This document shows, piece by piece, positions 45,842 through 55,157 of a stretch of DNA of 64,000 bases. Both the position numbers and the translations under genes were made by a program. The first letter of the stretch is position 1. The number at the start of each line of letters is the position of its first letter. The DNA lies in assembly GCF_026248685.1 (NCBI RefSeq), contig NZ_CP111037.1:186001-250000 (forward strand). The letters run 5' to 3'. This DNA comes from Haladaptatus caseinilyticus. Lineage in GTDB: Archaea > Halobacteriota > Halobacteria > Halobacteriales > Haladaptataceae. The notes under the pieces are model-generated. The model had not been told where the DNA came from, made no database searches, and was given only the letters and a program-made list of their open reading frames with translations.

Positions 45842-46122
45842 GGCCATATGGTACCATAGGCCATCGGTGAGGTTAGCTTTGCCGACGGATGAGATGACGG
45901 GTGACAAAATGAGATGTTCCATCTTCACGACATCTTGAGCGATTATTTGTGAAACCACTCGTAAATTACTGCATTAACCCCGTCGACAGCGATTTTTCTC
46001 TATATTTATAAGGTCGAGGAGATAAGAATGGACCACTCGCTGGTGATGGAGGGTCTCGTGCTTTCCCGAGGGCATAGGACGACATAGGAACTCATAGACA
46101 CAAAGAATCCCGTTGAATGATT

Positions 46123-46470
46123 CTATTTTTCTCGTAGCCGTGTTTCGAGAGCGTCCAACACTTCCCAGAGAACTCCAACGACTGAAGTCGCGTGAAGGGT
46201 GAACTCGTCATAGACGCAGTTTTCGTCCGATGACTCCCGTTCTAGAAAATGGAAATGACCGCGAATATGCGGATTTGGTTCGAGATGCCATCCGCAATCG
46301 AATCCCGAGGACTCGCTGTAATGAAAGGCGAAGTTGGATGTTAGCGACGTACGTTCGCGGTCTTCGAGCCCAATCTCTGGTGGAAATGTAGGATTCGGTT
46401 GCCATGTCATTCGAAATGTCGCTTTGTCAGCGTTGCGTCCAAAATACCGAGGATCAACCTGTGCTTGCAC
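46123..46470 (-). CDS. Orphan His/Trp-rich protein, possibly N-terminally truncated
   Basis: The 115-residue frame from GTG 46470 has the pattern 'FAFHYSESSGFDCGWHLEPN' then PHIRGHFHF, and ends 'LLWEVLDALETRL'-like (GVLWEVLDALETRL). The same order (HY, GWH, PH or EH, HFH, LWE) occurs in proteins at 49295 and 54714. The open frame continues upstream without a start to a TGA at 46567-46569 (S-S-A-A-R-Q-L-D-R-H-P-A-I), so the 5' end may be lost by a frameshift; a frame starting near 46694 could be the original beginning. No HTH partner gene is adjacent. Confidence 0.6.
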   Translation of the reverse strand: MQAQVDPRYFGRNADKATFRMTWQPNPTFPPEIGLEDRERTSLTSNFAFHYSESSGFDCGWHLEPNPHIRGHFHFLERESSDENCVYDEFTLHATSVVGVLWEVLDALETRLREK

Positions 46471-46733
46471 TTCAGCATAGTACCCATCTGGAATGCCATG
46501 TGCGTTCGTGATCGCCGGATGTCGATCGAGTTGTCTCGCAGCGCTCGAAGGATGCGGTGAAGTTTCTCAGCTGCCTCATCCGGGTTGTGTGATCCACCAT
46601 CCGGTCGAAGACGTACCAATGATTCACTCACTGCTATACCTCGGTCTGATCGATAGTGAGTCGGCAGAACCGACCATTCAGACGAATCTGTCATGGCGAG
46701 GCGGATGGGTGAGCAGTGTAGCAGTGAGTACAA

Positions 46734-47780: not shown

Positions 47781-48725
47781 CCATCGTGATGACCTCCCGT
47801 TGGGGGTTGCTTTCCACTGTTGTATCATATTTGTTACCTACTGTTCGACTTCTTTCTTGGAGTGCTTGTACTACCGATTTTGCAAATACGAATGAGCTAT
47901 TCTGTGCAACGGATTCAGGCGTCTGAGCCGTTTTCCGACCTCTATTTTCACATAGCAAATCCAACTTTATTCATATAGCATGAGTAACAAGAATAGACAA
48001 TTCAACTTCAAACGCGAAATTCAAGGGCGAGAAGGCCCAAAACAGTGCATATATCTCTGAAAGAAGCCAAAATCAGTTGCATATAACAAATAACGGATTG
48101 AGAGAAGCCCTAAGTTATTATATGCAAACCTAACGCCGCCATATTGCTTTGCGTACCTCCAAAACCGTCCAAAGTAATAGGGGGGTACGAAGAACAAACG
48201 AGACTAGCGCGACCGGGGGAAAACAAGCGGAACAAGCAATCAGGGAAAACTGCCGAATTATCAGCAATCTAGAAGAGGTGATCCGAGCAATCTGGACGCT
48301 GAAAACGGAGTGGCATGCGATAGTGCAGAAGAAAGATGGGCAATCAAACGGCAGATGGTACTGATATGATAGTGACCACTGGATTTCCTCAATCAAGTTT
48401 TCAGGGTTTAGATGATTTGAGACGAGTGCGTGTATTGACTGCTGGACGATCAACGGATGCTACGATGGAGTGAATCGAGTGGAACCTCGTCTCGTGAGCA
48501 GCATGAAATTGCGATCTCTTTCCGTCGTCTATCAAAGTAAGCACCATAGATAGAATGCAAATAGTACGTCTCGAGAGGGAAGAAATACTGGGTCGTGAAT
48601 GAGGATTGAATGGCATGCGAAGTGACCGATCTATCACTATTGAGAGTTACTGTTCGGGTCCATCTGTGATATACCCATGAAGAATTGCTCTCTCGACCAA
48701 ACCGGAAATGATTCCTCGAAGTAAG
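47781..48725. other. Long A/T-rich spacer, no certain gene
   Basis: About 950 bases without a convincing gene. A minus-strand frame near 48130-48270 encodes a hydrophobic stretch (FPPVALVSFVLRTPLLLW) that could be a small membrane-protein remnant, but it has no supported start. Composition suggests degraded or transferred DNA. Confidence 0.4.
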
Positions 48726-48735
48726 AACTATATCC
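48726..48735 (+). promoter_or_regulatory. TATA box of the first HTH/partner module
   Basis: AACTATATCC is centred about 25 nt before ATG 48756, as expected for a leaderless transcript of the two-gene module. Confidence 0.45.
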
Positions 48736-48755: not shown

Positions 48756-49292
48756 ATGGCTAATTCAGATCCCACCGACGGGCCACCCCCCTTCGAGGAC
48801 GCATTCAGCGGCGACGACGTCGAACAACAAATCTATGGGACTGTCCTCCGGACGCGCGAGCCAGTAACGGCGAGTGCAATCGCAGATCAAATCAATTGTG
48901 ATCCGAAAACTGCTCGGAAATACCTCAACTGGTTTGCGGATCTCGGGATCGTCACCCAACACGACGGGCATCCAGCCACCTACAAGCGCAATAACGCCTA
49001 TTTCGAGTGGCGACGCATCAATCAGCTCGCGGCACGTCATTCACTTGAAGAACTCCAGCAGCGCGTGCGTACGTTGACGACAAAGATCAATAGTTACGAA
49101 GACGAGTATGACGCTGCGATCCCGGCAGACGTTGATGCACTAGCCGTTGTCGAGACAACCGTTGATCGATCGATCGATGACGTGTACAGTGATCTCGCCG
49201 ACTGGATGACTGCTCGCGAAGAGAGAACACGCTATGAACGAGCACGCCAGCAACGCGCGGGTACCGCCGACCACGAACAAGCTTCTGGATAG
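48756..49292 (+). CDS. DUF7342-like HTH/coiled-coil protein, module copy 1
   Basis: The protein has 178 residues from ATG 48756. An acidic N-terminus (1-25) precedes a winged helix at about 28-85 (PVTASAIADQINCDPKTARK, then YLNWFADLGIV). A helical, coiled-coil-like region follows ('SLEELQQRVRTLTTKINSYE'), and a charged tail. The partner gene begins 2 nt after the stop. The HTH protein probably binds its own promoter and the partner protein. The family name DUF7342 is from memory; the domain order is seen directly. Confidence 0.75.
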   Translation: MANSDPTDGPPPFEDAFSGDDVEQQIYGTVLRTREPVTASAIADQINCDPKTARKYLNWFADLGIVTQHDGHPATYKRNNAYFEWRRINQLAARHSLEELQQRVRTLTTKINSYEDEYDAAIPADVDALAVVETTVDRSIDDVYSDLADWMTAREERTRYERARQQRAGTADHEQASG

Positions 49293-49294
49293 CA

Positions 49295-49729
49295 ATGGTA
49301 CCGCCAACTGGTGATGGGGGCAGTCCTGCACCCATCGACCACCCAATCCTTGAGTTTCTACAGACCAGGCTCAGCGCCACACAGCAAGTCGAACAGGCAG
49401 TCATCACTGATGCCAACGAACATCTTGAGCTTCGCGTTACATTCGCCGAGCCATATTATCCGACGTGGGTAGATGAGGCGACGCTCGCTGTCCGGTGGTA
49501 CACGAACGGCGACTTCAAAATTCACTATCGAGAAGTACACGCCGATAGCGCCTGGGAGTGTCGCTGGGATCGCCATCGGAACCCGCACAATACTGGAGAT
49601 CATTTCCATCCACCACCCACTGCTCCGACGCTTGGTGAGGATGCCACATGGCCAATTGATCATCGTGATATCCTGACGCTCGTCCTTGACGAGATTGAAC
49701 AGCGGATCACGACGCTGTGGGACGAATAG
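49295..49729 (+). CDS. His/Trp-rich partner protein, module copy 1
   Basis: The 144-residue protein has an N-terminal helix (HPILEFLQTRLSATQQVEQA), then strands with 'LAVRWYTNGDFKIHYREVHA', 'WECRWDRHRNPHNTGDHFHP', and a final helix 'DILTLVLDEIEQRITTLWDE'. The core W...HY...W.x.H...PH...HFH recurs at 46123 and 54714. The distance to the HTH gene is 2 nt, as in toxin-antitoxin operons. The His-rich GDHFH motif is reminiscent of TumE-type (DUF6516) toxins, but overall similarity is weak. No enzyme activity can be stated. Confidence 0.7.
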   Translation: MVPPTGDGGSPAPIDHPILEFLQTRLSATQQVEQAVITDANEHLELRVTFAEPYYPTWVDEATLAVRWYTNGDFKIHYREVHADSAWECRWDRHRNPHNTGDHFHPPPTAPTLGEDATWPIDHRDILTLVLDEIEQRITTLWDE

Positions 49730-49825
49730 GTAGTGAGGTCGTCGACGGACAATTATAAAGTACGGCACACGTAGCACTGAACGATACGAGTGCGCCTAAG
49801 AGCTCACCCTAGAGCGTGAATTTCC

Positions 49826-50033
49826 ATTGCAGGTTCAGACGCAATTATTGAATTCAACTTTTCACGAACGGCACAAGTTCTGGTCGCAATCATCATTCTT
49901 GGCGCCGGTGGCATAGCTGTAAACGGCGTTATGACGCCAGATGATCTTTCTGATAGTGCTTTCGTCGATGGCGATCTTTGCGACAGTGGCGTTCTGGCTC
50001 GGGATGAAATACGGTGAACACCCGTCTCTCTAG
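49826..50033 (+). pseudogene. Remnant of a small two-helix membrane protein
   Basis: One frame encodes 'TAQVLVAIIILGAGGIAVNG' followed by VMTPDD. After a frame change near 49945 the sequence continues 'FLIVLSSMAIFATVAFWLGM' and KYGEHPSL to TAG 50031. Together they form a typical two-helix haloarchaeal membrane protein. There is no start codon in frame. The gene is therefore decayed. Confidence 0.5.
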
Positions 50034-50131
50034 TAATTTCTATTGCACATCACCACATAGATTGGCAAGGTGGGTTTGTCACACGGGCCTTCAAATTTCT
50101 GTCTTCATGAAGAAACAGAAAGGGTTTGACA

Positions 50132-51360
50132 GTGTTCCGAGAATCGAGTACACAGACTGTGAATGACCGACCAACCACAGAGGGTTCTCAACGCGAGACA
50201 CTAGGCCTGCTCATCGGTTTTTTCTTGCTTTCGACAGCGGCCGCAGCCTATGAGATCGCCCCGGCAAGCGTCTTGCCGGTGATTCAAGAATCACTCGAAC
50301 TCAAGGCGAGTACTGCAGGATGGCTTGTCAGCATTATGTATGCGACTGCGGTCGTCACCAGCGTCCCCGCTGGCATCGCTATCGACCGCTTCTCGGTGCG
50401 TCGGATGATCGTCTTCGGCACCGTCGCACTCGTCGTCGCGGGTGTCTGGGGCTGGTATGCGGCCACGGCCAGCGCGTTTCTCTGGCTGCTCGTTTCGCGC
50501 GTCCTCGGCGGTATCGCGTATGTCATCTTCTGGAACGCAGGTGCGAACGTTGTCGGAAGCGCCGTCGCACCTCGCCATCGGGCAACCGTAGTCGGCGTGT
50601 TTACCGCGAGCGCACCCGTCGGATTCGCGCTCGGCCAGTTCGGCAGTCCCCTCATCGCAACCGTTGCTGGGTGGCCAGCGATCCTCCCGCTGTATGCCGC
50701 CATGGGTGTCGTCGGTGTCACTATTTTCTTGCTCGCGACCCGCCACCACGTTCCTGGCGTTGACGCATCGGCACCGGATCGCACGGCGCTGCGCGGAATG
50801 TTCACTAATCAGGGGGTCTGGATGATCTGTGTGCTCTGTTTCCTTGCCTACTCGCTGTATCTCTTCGTCAACACATGGTTACCGAGCTATCTAGTCGACG
50901 GATTCGACATCTCGCTAGCGGCAAGCGGCCTGCTGACAGCGCTGTTCCCGGCGATTGGAGCAATTGGACGGTCAAGCAGTGGTGTCGTCTCTGATCGGAT
51001 GTTTAGCGGGAAACGTCGCCCCGTTGTAGCGTCGTCGTTCGTCGTCGCACACCCGCCGTCGTCGCCTTCGCGTTTGTCTCGCAGCTCGGGCTCGTCGGCG
51101 GGGCGGTGGTCGTCGTCGGCTTCGCTATCCAACTCGTTACTGGACTGCTCTTTTCGTACATCGCCGAACTCGTCCCGCCGGCGGTGCAGACTACGGCTGT
51201 TTCGTTGCTGACGAGTGTTGGCTTGTTAGGCGCGTTTGCTGCACCGATCGCCGGCGGAATCATTATCGACCGTGCAGGCTACAGCCCGGCGTTTTTCGTC
51301 GCCGGTGGGGTCGCCCTCGTCGGTGGGATCTTAGCTCTGCGGGCACCTGAACCCACCTAA
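50132..51360 (+). pseudogene. Major facilitator superfamily transporter with a frameshift
   Basis: The first frame (GTG 50132, or TTG 50126) encodes ten helices of an MFS transporter with 'GIAIDRFSVRRMIVFGTVAL' (motif A) and ends near 51050 in non-membrane residues. The next frame resumes with LVGGAVVVVGFAIQLVTG, 'LLFSYIAELVPPAVQTTAVS' and the last helices to TAA 51360. The break is around 51040-51055, in a CG-rich stretch. Restored length is about 410 residues, normal for MFS. A single lesion could be a read error; otherwise the gene is inactive. Confidence 0.75.
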
Positions 51361-51694
51361 GAGCACGTCTCTTCTGACAGCAGTTGGTGGGGTTGTTCTG
51401 ATGGTTGCCGGAGGGGTTTCAACGAGCATGCTGAATGTCGAGTATATTGGTCCGAGGCTTTCTGGATTATACTGTTTGAGATTGCGGTGCTTAGCTTGCG
51501 AGAGCAAGCTCTCACTGCTTCTCACTCGCTCACGTTCGTTCGTGGAACGTCGGCTCGCTCGACGAGCGCACGACCCTTTTCAATCCCACCCGGAGTGGAC
51601 TGTCGAGATTTGTACTCACTGTTTAACTGGTGATTCGTAAACGGCACGCCCCGATTGCGACCGATCAGTTAAGGCGTGCGGCGCGGGATGCTGG
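51361..51694. other. Intergenic stretch with no gene
   Basis: It contains imperfect short repeats (GCTTGCGAGAGCAAGC hairpin near 51498-51514, and CGCTC-rich tracts) but no coding frame. The hairpin may be structural or a remnant of an element. Confidence 0.4.
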
Positions 51695-52150
51695 GTGAGC
51701 ATTAGCTCATCAGAAACGATTATCGGGTGGCGTGAGAAAGCCAAGCGTGTGACTGACGACGTCGAGTATCCTTCCGTCGAGTTGATTCTCACCCTCCATG
51801 AACAAATCGTTGAGGAGGGCGACACTACGGAACCAGATGTTCAGTCAGAGGACTCGATTAAATCCGCATTGCAGTACGTTTCGGAGGGATTCTTCGGCGA
51901 AGTACCAGAAACACTCCACGAAAATGCGGTGCATCTGATGCGACTGCTCGTTGCAGACCATCCGTTTGTCGACGGGAACAAACGAACTGCACTCCGAACG
52001 GTGGTCATCTTCTACATGCTGAATGGATATACATTCAAGTATGGCGACGAAATTCGCGCATTACTCCATCGCTTCGCGATTGACGAAGCCACAGTCGACA
52101 TCGATACCGTAGTCATCTACTTCCGTGCCTGCGCTCGTCGCAACTGCTAA
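51695..52150 (+). CDS. Death-on-curing (Doc/Fic) family toxin
   Basis: The 151-residue protein (GTG start) has the Fic active-site motif HPFVDGNKR at 89-97, in the Doc form with Lys. The N-terminal part 'YPSVELILTLHEQIVEEGD' matches Doc-type proteins. Such proteins modify translation factors by phosphorylation (Doc) or AMPylation. A small acidic protein follows at 52181 and may be the antitoxin. Confidence 0.88.
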   Translation: MSISSSETIIGWREKAKRVTDDVEYPSVELILTLHEQIVEEGDTTEPDVQSEDSIKSALQYVSEGFFGEVPETLHENAVHLMRLLVADHPFVDGNKRTALRTVVIFYMLNGYTFKYGDEIRALLHRFAIDEATVDIDTVVIYFRACARRNC

Positions 52151-52180
52151 AGGGACACGATGAATATATTCAATCCAGCA

Positions 52181-52351
52181 ATGGCGTCCAGCACCGATTC
52201 CTCAGAGACGGTCGATGAAGAAGTTCGCCGACTGTACGAACGGTATCAGTCAGCGGAGAGTGACGAAGAACGTCAAGAGATCGCCCTCGAGATGGGGAAA
52301 CTCGATGGGCGTCGTCACGCCGATATTTACGCAGCACTTGAGGACGAGTGA
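52181..52351 (+). CDS. Small acidic protein, probable antitoxin of the Doc toxin
   Basis: The 56-residue product (ATG 52181; an in-frame ATG at 52160 adds 7 residues) is highly charged and helical: 'EVRRLYERYQSAESDEERQE' and ALEMGKLDGRRHAD. It begins 30 nt after the toxin stop. Order toxin-antitoxin is reversed from the classical phd-doc operon. The antitoxin role is inferred from position. Confidence 0.6.
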   Translation: MASSTDSSETVDEEVRRLYERYQSAESDEERQEIALEMGKLDGRRHADIYAALEDE

Positions 52352-52463
52352 ACTGCCTCAGGATCAAGATCCGTATCATCCTTCCACGAATTTCTGTGAG
52401 TCTTTGAGCAGGCACGTGGTAAACATTTAATTCACATTGAAGCGCAAATACTCAGTATCACCA

Positions 52464-53300
52464 TTAGTCCGCATTAGCGCTTGACAACCCACCGTCTGCC
52501 GCCAAGATACATGAACGAACGGATGAAGGTCTCGATTTATGGCTGCTGACAAAGCACTCTACAACGTTCGAGAGCAATCTGGAAACCCTGCCCACACGTC
52601 GGTTGAGGACGTGGTCGAACGTGTGTTTGAGCGAGCAAGGAACCCGCGTGAAGACTATCAGGACGCGCATTTCGACGGGATAATGGCTGACGTCGTTGAT
52701 CGATATGGAACTACTGTCGTTCGCACCGTCATCCATCGCGTCCTCGTCGAGCAGTACCCGTTTCGGACAGCCACGATTGGGCTTGATATGCGCACCGTTG
52801 ATGGCGTTCGAATCGGGACGACAGCTATCTGGTCCCTTCAAGAGTTGAACCGCAAGCAAGACGCCTGAGAGAGATATGGCCTTATTTTTGCTGTAAGTCT
52901 CTCCAATCATCAGTCCTTCTATCGGGAGAGAAACGGTGACTGGTTCGTCTTCGAGAAGCGGACGAAGTTCACTGTAATAGGCCTCTCCGGCGTGGATAAA
53001 GAGGTGGACGTCGTTGCGAAGGAATCCTCGGTCACCGAATTCGTCGACGATATCCGCTGCCCACGCTCTTCGGGTTGCAATAGATGCATTCGTCAACGTC
53101 TCGTCGTACGGTTCGATAGGCGGCCCGTCCGGGTCAAGGAGACCGTGTTTCGCCGAGAGGATATACCATTCATCGTACGTGCGCTCACAGTACTCGCGAG
53201 CGTTCTGAAAGAGCGTCGAGGGTTCAGAGAGGTCTCTTGGGGGAGCAGGCTCGTCCGTTTTGGACTTCGTACAGCTGATCAAGCCGGTCTCTCGAGTCAT
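52464..53300 (-). CDS. DUF6884-type protein with an abnormal C-terminal readthrough
   Basis: Residues 1-140 match the DUF6884 type: MTRETGLISCTKSKTDEPAP, 'YILSAKHGLLDPDGPPIEPY' and 'LEDEPVTVSLPIEGLMIGE'. From about residue 145 (near 52865) the frame continues with low-quality sequence that is antisense to the plus-strand gene 52539-52868. A typical family member would end soon after IGE plus a short Trp/Tyr segment. The natural 3' end is probably lost and the tail is readthrough. Activity is uncertain. Confidence 0.55.
   Translation of the reverse strand: MTRETGLISCTKSKTDEPAPPRDLSEPSTLFQNAREYCERTYDEWYILSAKHGLLDPDGPPIEPYDETLTNASIATRRAWAADIVDEFGDRGFLRNDVHLFIHAGEAYYSELRPLLEDEPVTVSLPIEGLMIGETYSKNKAISLSGVLLAVQLLKGPDSCRPDSNAINGAHIKPNRGCPKRVLLDEDAMDDGANDSSSISINDVSHYPVEMRVLIVFTRVPCSLKHTFDHVLNRRVGRVSRLLSNVVECFVSSHKSRPSSVRSCILAADGGLSSANAD
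52539..52868 (+). CDS. Acidic helical protein of unknown function
   Basis: The 109-residue protein starts 'MAADKALYNVREQSGNPAHT', contains 'DGIMADVVDRYGTTVVRTVI' and ends 'SLQELNRKQDA'. Composition is haloarchaeal and the frame is better than the antisense one. It occupies the 3' end region of the opposite DUF6884 frame. No family is recognised. Confidence 0.55.
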   Translation: MAADKALYNVREQSGNPAHTSVEDVVERVFERARNPREDYQDAHFDGIMADVVDRYGTTVVRTVIHRVLVEQYPFRTATIGLDMRTVDGVRIGTTAIWSLQELNRKQDA

Positions 53301-53530
53301 GTAACTATGAGCGATCTAGAAGTAGTAGGCGGTTATTCTTCCAGTATATACGTCATTAATTGAGAGTGTAGTGTCAGTCTCGATCTGATCTTTGTTCCGA
53401 GGATTGCAGTCAGTATCCATAGTGTTCCTAATTCGGTTTTCGAATCGATCCTTTGTTTAGGACAGAAATTGCACGCGCGCCGGAAATTCACAGGAACACC
53501 GATACTCACGAGCCGCAGTCCCGCAGGTGG

Positions 53531-53553
53531 TTTTTTCGCACCCTGAGGGTGCG
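53531..53553. repeat. T-tract followed by GCACCCTGAGGGTGC hairpin (copy 1)
   Basis: Six T residues are followed by an inverted repeat with 7-nt arms (CGCACCC/GGGTGCG, 3-nt loop) and a G-run. A similar arrangement is at 56718-56747. The 53301-53584 spacer shows no other feature. The T-tract could stop transcription. Confidence 0.45.
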
Positions 53554-53593
53554 GGGGGTTCCAGAACGAGCGTCTCGATGAGGAATGGTTTCG

Positions 53594-53770
53594 ATGATAC
53601 TCAGCGACAGCTACGCAACCGGCTTCGACGAAGATGTACCGAGCGAACCAACTTCCCAGTGTCCGAAATGCGACGGCCTGGTCACAACCAATGTGGTCGA
53701 AACAGTCTGCGAAGACTGTGGGCTCGTCATCAACGAACAACAAATCAATTACAGACCGGAGTTTGCATGA
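53594..53770 (+). CDS. TFB zinc-ribbon-only protein
   Basis: The 58-residue protein (ATG 53594; 53585 also possible) has the TFIIB-type zinc ribbon CPKCDG, then 'TTNVVETVCEDCGLVINEQQ', but lacks the cyclin folds that follow in full TFB (about 300 residues). The chain ends right after the B-reader region (NYRPEFA). It may be a truncated TFB gene or a real small competitor that binds RNA polymerase. Its stop overlaps the next start (ATGA). Confidence 0.7.
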   Translation: MILSDSYATGFDEDVPSEPTSQCPKCDGLVTTNVVETVCEDCGLVINEQQINYRPEFA

Positions 53771-53913
53771 AAGACCTCCTGATGCAACTTACTGGCCGGT
53801 CACACAGCACAGTCATTGCTGAGTGTCGGCAGTGTGGAACCACGGTCGAGGTCGAAACGAGCGAGTGTCCGGAATGCAACCACGATGGGATCGCGATTTA
53901 CCGATTCGACTAA
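53767..53913 (+). CDS. 48-residue zinc-ribbon protein coupled to the TFB-like gene
   Basis: The product starts 'MKDLLMQLTGRSHSTVIAE' and has CRQCG and CPECN knuckles separated by 10 residues, giving one zinc ribbon. ATGA overlap with the TFB-like gene suggests translational coupling. No named family is recognised. Confidence 0.65.
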   Translation: MKDLLMQLTGRSHSTVIAECRQCGTTVEVETSECPECNHDGIAIYRFD

Positions 53914-54133
53914 CCGACCTGGGTTCCTGTCGACCCTTGCTACGAGTGATCCCGTTCTGTACACGTAGAGAGCGTGTTATGTTGGTCCTATGAATGCAAT
54001 TAGCACTATTCATTCATACTGACCGATATCGGCACGTGAAATTTGCACCACTTGCCTCCATGAGCGTCGATCTCACTGCGATTTTCATAGAACGGTCTAG
54101 CTGTAGTGTTTCGATATAGAATGAATTACCCTC

Positions 54134-54145
54134 AACCTATATGAA
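54134..54145 (+). promoter_or_regulatory. TATA box of the second HTH/partner module
   Basis: AACCTATATGAA is centred about 28 nt before ATG 54168. The upstream ATG at 54141 lies inside the box, so 54168 is the likely leaderless start. Confidence 0.5.
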
Positions 54146-54167
54146 GATTCAACCCATACGTACAGAC

Positions 54168-54710
54168 ATGGACAAGGATTCAGAGGAACCAGACACAGGG
54201 CTCATGGAGCGTCACACGACAGGCGAAGACCGTGTCCGGATGGTGGCCCGCCAAGTGTCTGAACCCCGTACTGTGAATTGGATTGCCTCGGAGGCAGAGT
54301 GGTCACACGAGCCGACCAAACGCGTTCTTGAGCGACTCGTGGATGATGGCGTGCTCCGCCGCGATGAGAGTGGTGCTCACACGACCTACTCCCCAGACTA
54401 TCGTCGACAGGCAATGCAAGAGGCCGTCCGACTTCGCGATAGCCACCGGACAGTTGAAGAATTAACTGATCGGCTGTCCGAGATGAAAGCCCAGATCCGG
54501 GACTGGGAAAAGACATTTGCAATCGAGTCACCGAATCAATTGCGGGCGACGATTGCAGATGAAACTCTTAGCTCGGATGAAGAAGCCCAACGACGGGAAA
54601 TCGCCCGAGAGTGGGAGCATCTCCAACAACGAATCCAGATCGTCGGATTTGCAATTCGGGAATGGGACTTCTTGGCCCCAAGCGCAGACCGTGCCGAGGC
54701 AAGTAACTGA
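54168..54710 (+). CDS. DUF7342-like HTH/coiled-coil protein, module copy 2
   Basis: The 180-residue protein has an acidic N-terminus, a winged helix (VRMVARQVSEPRTVNWIASE, 'AEWSHEPTKRVLERLVDDGV') and a coiled-coil region ('SHRTVEELTDRLSEMKAQIR'), with a C-terminal helical segment not present in copy 1. The partner gene starts 3 nt after the stop. The arrangement repeats that at 48756, though sequence identity is low, showing an old, mobile or duplicated module. Confidence 0.75.
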   Translation: MDKDSEEPDTGLMERHTTGEDRVRMVARQVSEPRTVNWIASEAEWSHEPTKRVLERLVDDGVLRRDESGAHTTYSPDYRRQAMQEAVRLRDSHRTVEELTDRLSEMKAQIRDWEKTFAIESPNQLRATIADETLSSDEEAQRREIAREWEHLQQRIQIVGFAIREWDFLAPSADRAEASN

Positions 54711-54713
54711 CAG

Positions 54714-55157
54714 ATGTCCGTCCCACATCCAGGCGGAAATCCGAATGCACAGTTATACGAGCAGCTGAAACGAGATGTCCTCGAACGCGTTCCCCACATC
54801 ACAACGATCGAGTACGTTCCGGACGACGTGGAAGCCACACAGCTGCGGGCAACCTTCGATCCGAGCCGCATCAATCCACCCACTGGTCCAGAGGCACCCG
54901 AACTCGTCATCAAGTGGTATCGCCAAACACCGCATGATTGGTTTCGTATCAACTATAGCGACCCGAACACAGATTTCCATGCTGGGTGGCACCAGGACGA
55001 GGATCACGAAGACCTCGGACGAGAGCATTTCCAGTACTCGATTGACGAGGAAACGATGCACCAGCCAGTGACGTTTCAACACGAGACCCCATCGCTCATC
55101 CTCTGGGAAATTATTGAGAATCTTCTGGAGGAAATCCTTCCGACCTACCACCGCTAG
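54714..55157 (+). CDS. His/Trp-rich partner protein, module copy 2
   Basis: The 147-residue protein has an N-terminal helix, then 'LVIKWYRQTPHDWFRINYSD', 'DFHAGWHQDEDHEDLGREHF' and the end 'PSLILWEIIENLLEEILPTY'. Conserved points with 46123 and 49295 are the WY, the aromatic-Tyr pair before GWH, an acidic or polar loop, an HF or HFH, and the LWE-type helix. It has no known fold that I can name. It lies next to a Fic gene. Confidence 0.7.
   Translation: MSVPHPGGNPNAQLYEQLKRDVLERVPHITTIEYVPDDVEATQLRATFDPSRINPPTGPEAPELVIKWYRQTPHDWFRINYSDPNTDFHAGWHQDEDHEDLGREHFQYSIDEETMHQPVTFQHETPSLILWEIIENLLEEILPTYHR

What the first reader, a model, noticed from the sequence alone, without database searches (positions are those of the whole stretch)
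48756..55157. Candidate undescribed two-gene module: HTH/coiled-coil gene plus His/Trp-rich partner, present twice
At 48756-49729 and 54168-55157 an HTH protein gene is followed after 2-3 nt by a gene for a 144-147 residue protein with the same pattern (W..., HY or NY, GWH or RWD-H, PH/EH, HFH or HF, final LWE/TLW helix). Both modules have a TATA box 25-28 nt before the HTH start. They lie in an island with Doc and Fic proteins. The layout is like toxin-antitoxin or small defence modules; the GDHFH motif weakly recalls TumE, but the remainder differs. The function is inference.
Basis: partly seen in the sequence, partly recalled or inferred. Interest (0 to 1): 0.8.

Follow-up and report, generated by a model that had tools for sequence, protein, structure and literature searches.

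The report
Haloarchaeal TumE-like toxin–antitoxin modules
These gene pairs look like selfish "poison and antidote" cassettes, found in most salt-loving archaea and often in many copies; the poison is a distant, unannotated relative of the translation-blocking toxin TumE, paired here with a DNA-binding antidote that carries the label DUF7342.

Summary
The two modules are real and placed as described: HTH genes 48756-49292 and 54168-54710, partners 49295-49729 and 54714-55157, each with a TATA box about 25 nt upstream. A third copy at 46119-46721 (- strand) is a wreck. The HTH proteins are Pfam DUF7342. The partners match no curated family, but they form one family of at least two sequence types. 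By profile comparison, whole-genome search and predicted fold this family is a distant branch of the TumE toxin superfamily, whose tested members inhibit growth and are neutralised by an adjacent antitoxin (PMC10584680). The pair behaves like a type II toxin-antitoxin system: in 28 genomes, 102 of 104 near-full-length partners sit just behind DUF7342; antitoxins with lost or broken toxins occur, while an intact partner without antitoxin was seen once; the two proteins co-diverge (r = 0.96). Each type has its own conserved dyad just upstream of the TATA box. Type A occurs in 234 of 292 haloarchaeal genomes searched; this genome holds 12 partner copies. The TA layout was read correctly and the TumE hint was the right lead; 'undescribed' holds only for this branch. 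Toxicity, RNase activity and operator binding are inferred. New variant of a known kind.

The parts
48704..48715 (+). Type A dyad GGAA-N4-TTCC just upstream of the TATA box; candidate DUF7342 operator
   Evidence: GGAA-N4-TTC[CT] in 24 of 28 type A upstream regions while flanking intergenic DNA is not conserved; dyad plus TATA pattern has 1 exact match in the window, 0 expected. Binding is inferred.
48729..48733 (+). TATA box of module A (leaderless-type spacing to the ATG)
   Evidence: sequence, conserved across loci
48756..49292 (+). hA: DUF7342 winged-HTH protein, predicted antitoxin A
   Evidence: Pfam PF24033 E = 2.7e-21, above cut-off
49295..49729 (+). pA: type A TumE-like predicted toxin (R90-W-D...H103-F-H105)
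   Evidence: profile-profile with TumE; AF2 model pLDDT 89.5
54110..54125 (+). Type B dyad TTCG-N8-CGAA (here TTCGATATAGAATGAA, one mismatch); candidate operator
   Evidence: conserved across genera in type B upstream regions while flanks are not. Binding is inferred.
54138..54142 (+). TATA box of module B
   Evidence: sequence, conserved
54168..54710 (+). hB: DUF7342 winged-HTH protein, predicted antitoxin B
   Evidence: Pfam PF24033 E = 4.2e-52
54714..55157 (+). pB: type B TumE-like predicted toxin (GWHQDxDH...HFQ)
   Evidence: same family as pA; relatives on 68 plasmids, annotated hypothetical in the rows shown
46119..46694 (-). Third partner gene, type B-like, broken by a frameshift
   Evidence: 82% DNA identity to the intact copy L039 with a 1-base gap in the coding region
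46691..46721 (-). Last codons of a deleted DUF7342 antitoxin, ATGA-overlapping the relic toxin
   Evidence: alignment to L039 begins here

Best explanation
Each pair is a type II toxin-antitoxin operon. The downstream protein is a TumE-superfamily toxin: an antiparallel beta sheet plus helices, carrying a cluster of His and acidic residues at the W[DH]...[DP]H...HF[HQ] motif. By analogy with experimentally tested TumE it would stop translation, possibly by cutting RNA. The upstream DUF7342 protein is its TumA-equivalent antitoxin. Its N-terminal winged HTH is predicted to bind the type-specific dyad next to the TATA box and repress the operon. Its C-terminal helical part is predicted to bind and silence the toxin. 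The modules would stabilise plasmids and genomic islands, and may also serve stress or antiviral responses. Shown here: gene pairing, co-divergence, loss asymmetry, homology to TumE, predicted fold, conserved promoter dyads. Inferred: toxicity, neutralisation, RNase chemistry, operator binding, biological role.
For: Homology to TumE: hhalign P = 3.3e-6, probability 88%, score 38 against a maximum of 16.6 in 200 column-shuffled controls. Searching 18 non-haloarchaeal genomes that carry TumE with the partner profile gave hits in 8, and in 7 of these the only hit lies on the TumE gene (best E = 4.5e-6). TumE is the most frequent Pfam match among 52 partners (11 members, best 7.8e-4). Fold: pA model a-b-b-b-b-b-b-a, pLDDT 89.5; own-genome TumE model has six strands then a helix in a matching order, pLDDT 90.7. 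TumE was published as two helices on an antiparallel sheet with no PDB match, mostly downstream of its bicistronic partner, toxic, neutralised by its neighbour and translation-inhibiting (PMC10584680). Pairing: 102/104 near-full-length partners have DUF7342 directly upstream; 108/122 DUF7342 have a detected partner and 5 more a diverged one. Co-divergence: Mantel r 0.96 within each type, permutation maximum 0.31. Loss asymmetry: 12 of 122 partner matches carry stops, none of the 122 full-length DUF7342 matches does. Promoter dyads. Plasmid carriage, 68 and 116 records.
Against: Neither window partner hits Pfam TumE, and the best of 52 family members reaches only 7.8e-4; type A or B alone gives only weak profile similarity to TumE (P = 0.03 and 8e-4), so the signal needs the combined profile. 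The TumE Arg, Asp and second His of the motif are changed in type B. One intact partner lacks an antitoxin (L021), and one antitoxin beside an open partner frame looks interrupted (L176). Homology of the DUF7342 C-terminus to archaeal TumA is only suggestive (P = 0.0015-0.003). No expression data.
Confidence: 0.82

Rival explanations
1. The pair is a non-toxic regulatory unit: a DUF7342 repressor or activator whose partner is a ligand-binding or co-regulator protein on the TumE-like scaffold, controlling itself and perhaps neighbouring genes.
For: HTH plus conserved promoter dyads; no toxicity data; several DUF7342 genes stand alone, and in some plasmids a tyrosine recombinase gene follows in the same operon.
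Against: About 12 divergent copies in one genome, plasmid carriage, more breakage of partner than of HTH genes and homology to a validated toxin fit a TA system better.
Confidence: 0.12
2. A dedicated antiviral (abortive infection) module in which the HTH protein senses infection and releases the effector; defence rather than addiction is its main role.
For: Lies near Doc and SoFic-type Fic genes; TA toxins are often used in defence (general knowledge).
Against: No PADLOC match for the partners and only generic HTH matches for the DUF7342 proteins; enrichment in defence islands was not tested. Not exclusive with the best explanation.
Confidence: 0.12
3. The His/Trp-rich partner is unrelated to TumE and only converged on a metal- or nucleic-acid-binding motif.
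For: Single-type profiles give weak scores; no individual window partner hits Pfam TumE.
Against: Genome-wide searches land on TumE genes in 7 of 8 genomes with a hit; matching strand order; shuffled and reversed controls far lower.
Confidence: 0.07

Closest known systems
TumE-TumA toxin-antitoxin superfamily (TumE = DUF6516 / Pfam PF20126; PMC10584680)
   Same: Toxin gene directly downstream of a small antitoxin gene; antiparallel sheet plus C-terminal helix; motif core [RG][WYF][DH]...[DP]H...H[HF][KHQ] in the same strand context; detectable profile homology.
   Different: Not recognised by the Pfam model; extra N-terminal helix and strand (about 145 versus about 100 aa); antitoxin is a winged-HTH DUF7342 protein instead of the short helical archaeal TumA seen or the RelB-like one in the paper; type B replaces the R-x-D and the final His.
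DUF7342 (Pfam PF24033)
   Same: Both HTH proteins match above the curated cut-off.
   Different: No function is given by Pfam; here it is proposed to be the antitoxin and autorepressor of a TumE-like toxin.
Canonical haloarchaeal TumE (e.g. own genome C5:547504, L034)
   Same: Same superfamily, same genome.
   Different: About 102 aa, passes the Pfam cut-off, no DUF7342 gene immediately upstream in the loci examined.

Membership tests
TumE (PF20126) | Match to the curated Pfam model above its gathering score | tested here: not met
   pA and pB: no hit; own-genome TumE search rings above cut-off only at the canonical TumE; best of 52 members 7.8e-4. So it is filed as a sister branch, not as PF20126.
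TumE superfamily (wider) | Homology by profile and genome-wide search | tested here: met
   P = 3.3e-6 with controls; 7 of 8 genome hits on TumE genes
TumE superfamily (wider) | Alpha+beta fold, antiparallel sheet with helices | tested here: met
   AF2 models pLDDT 89.5 and 90.7 with matching element order
TumE superfamily (wider) | Conserved R-[WY]-D-N ... H-x-H motif | tested here: inconclusive
   Type A keeps R-W-D...H-F-H; type B has G-W-H...H-F-Q
TumE-TumA | Bicistronic, toxin predominantly downstream of its antitoxin | tested here: met
   102/104; all 14 close pB relatives have DUF7342 sequence directly upstream, one of them broken
TumE-TumA | Growth inhibition neutralised by the neighbour; loss of methionine incorporation | not testable with these tools
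   needs expression assays
TumA (archaeal, short helical type) | Antitoxin C-terminal domain homologous to DUF7342 C-terminus | tested here: inconclusive
   P = 0.0015-0.003, above shuffled controls but helical composition bias possible
DUF7342 (PF24033) | Match above Pfam cut-off | tested here: met
   2.7e-21 and 4.2e-52
Known anti-phage systems (PADLOC) | Match of the pair to a defence family | tested here: not met
   partners: none; HTH proteins: weak generic HTH matches only

The most novel reading that the evidence does not exclude
Haloarchaea carry a large, so far unrecognised toxin-antitoxin network: up to a dozen divergent DUF7342/TumE-like modules per genome. Each subtype would have its own operator dyad and matched toxin, forming insulated circuits. 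On some plasmids a tyrosine recombinase joins as a third gene, making a combined addiction and replicon-resolution cassette.
Probability: 0.3. Interest if true: 0.75.

Novelty: new variant of a known kind. Interest (0 to 1): 0.56.

Why it matters
If right, one of the commonest anonymous gene pairs of haloarchaea (type A partner in 80% of genomes searched) gets a testable function. Plasmid records annotate it as hypothetical protein and Pfam has no family for the partner. It extends TumE-TumA, tested so far (in the paper found) only with gammaproteobacterial examples, to a large archaeal branch with a DNA-binding antitoxin. It supplies ready candidates for studying plasmid addiction, persistence and virus resistance in Haloferax and relatives.

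Tried and rejected
Pfam, NCBIfam, PADLOC and PHROGs gave no confident family for the partners. PDB sequence search of pA: nothing. Foldseek against PDB and BFVD: no confident match. VIA-align: best Z 7.0 (actin-capping protein) for pA, 5.2 for the TumE model; both align sheet and helix to the same part of capping protein (Z 7.0 and 4.3), too weak to count. IMG/VR scan with pB: no relatives. A1 could not be used for the genome-contig scan; the single protein was used instead. Idea that DUF7342's C-terminus is homologous to archaeal TumA: kept as suggestive only. Idea that a tyrosine recombinase is a regular third gene: only a minority of loci. My text patterns for the type B dyad failed; conclusions rest on the column-conservation lines of that call and the alignment. 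No paper in the held library mentions DUF7342; DUF6516 appears in one.

Full report
What is there. The window holds two intact two-gene modules, hA-pA (48756-49729) and hB-pB (54168-55157), with 2 and 3 nt between the genes and a TATA box about 25 nt before each first ATG. The HTH proteins belong to Pfam DUF7342. The partners match no curated family. A third copy on the minus strand (46119-46721) has lost its antitoxin except the last codons and its toxin frame is shifted; an intact sister of it lies elsewhere in the genome (L039). The genome has 12 DUF7342 genes above the Pfam cut-off and 12 partner genes, the relic included; nearly every DUF7342 gene is followed at once by a partner.

One partner family, at least two types. 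pA-like (type A) proteins read ..DF.IHY.E....W.CRWDRH.N.HN..DHFHPPP.., pB-like (type B) ..F.I.Y.D....F..GWH.D.DH.DLG..HFQ... Pairwise BLAST is weak, but iterative profiles started from either end collect the same 96 sequences and the two type profiles match at P = 5e-13. A further diverged set turned up behind DUF7342 genes that at first seemed solitary (L203-L207).

Relation to TumE. In the iterative search, almost all sub-threshold hits beyond family fragments were canonical TumE proteins. Among Pfam families TumE is the most frequent match (11 of 52 members; best E 7.8e-4). Profile against profile with an archaeal TumE alignment gives P = 3.3e-6, score 38, against a maximum of 16.6 in 200 column-shuffled and 10.8 in reversed controls. 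The strongest test is genome-wide: the partner profile, run over 18 non-haloarchaeal genomes known to carry TumE, found something in 8, and in 7 of them the only hit coincides with a TumE gene, best E 4.5e-6. In a sample not chosen for TumE, 48 of 53 haloarchaea but 1 of 242 other members of the phylum hit at E <= 1e-3, and that one (G451) is a TumE gene. AlphaFold2 models agree in strand order: pA H16-27 E32-40 E43-50 E59-69 E74-82 E86-93 E102-105 H123-143 (pLDDT 89.5); own-genome TumE E9-17 E21-29 E40-48 E53-58 E70-73 E77-80 H86-101 (pLDDT 90.7). The partner thus looks like TumE plus an N-terminal helix and strand. Since Pfam's model does not recognise it, I call it a TumE-like sister branch rather than a PF20126 member.

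Does it behave like a toxin-antitoxin pair? Counting over 28 genomes of the same family: 102 of 104 near-full-length partners have DUF7342 directly upstream; the two exceptions are the relic in this window and one gene (L021). Of 122 full-length DUF7342, 108 have a detected partner; of the other 14, five have a diverged partner, four have a broken or truncated one, five have none (for L198). Twelve of 122 partner matches carry stop codons, none of the 122 full-length DUF7342 matches does. Loss of the toxin with the antitoxin kept is what a TA system predicts. Distances among partners and among their HTH proteins correlate at r = 0.96 within type A and within type B, permutations at most 0.31.

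Regulation. Upstream regions of type A modules share GGAA-N4-TTCC and those of type B TTCG-N8-CGAA, each a short distance upstream of the TATA box, conserved across genera while the surrounding intergenic DNA is not. I infer that each DUF7342 subtype binds its own dyad and represses its operon; this was not tested.

Mechanism. TumE from Allochromatium tepidum blocks methionine incorporation, and six gammaproteobacterial TumE toxins are neutralised by their neighbours; RNase action was proposed, not proven (PMC10584680). By homology I expect the same here: shown are pairing, homology, fold prediction and conservation; inferred are toxicity, target and neutralisation. The DUF7342 C-terminal half resembles the short archaeal TumA-like proteins found next to TumE outside the haloarchaea, P about 0.002, which would make the whole module a TumA-TumE pair with an added DNA-binding domain; this needs structures.

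Distribution. Type A occurs in 234 of 292 haloarchaeal genomes searched and 71 of 77 genera. pB relatives lie on 68 and pA relatives on 116 plasmids, labelled hypothetical protein in the rows shown that have a listed gene. The nearest relatives of pB are in Haladaptatus. Verdict: ordinary in kind (type II TA), new as a branch and as a toxin-antitoxin combination.

Noticed in passing
window 50126-51360 (+): MFS-type transporter gene split over two overlapping frames (361 aa and 84 aa), apparently a frameshifted pseudogene inside the island.
   Followed up: no
window 52464-53300 (-): ORF beginning like a small 'SCTKSK...AKHGLLDP' protein whose second half looks out of frame; probably decayed.
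   Followed up: no
window 53650-53770 (+): Short zinc-ribbon fragment (CPKCDGLVTTNVVETVCEDCGLV) resembling a TFIIB N-terminus, without the rest of the gene.
   Followed up: no
L167 3416-5694, L168 3458-5700, L009: On some haloarchaeal plasmids the module's toxin gene overlaps the start of a tyrosine recombinase gene, giving a three-gene operon; remnants of it in L010 and L193.
   Followed up: partly
L195, L196, L197: Three genomes carry the same solitary DUF7342 gene followed after about 30 nt by a short unrelated helical protein gene; possible partner swap.
   Followed up: no
L191 3707-4174 (-): A canonical TumE gene lies next to a DUF7342/type B module in Halostagnicola.
   Followed up: no
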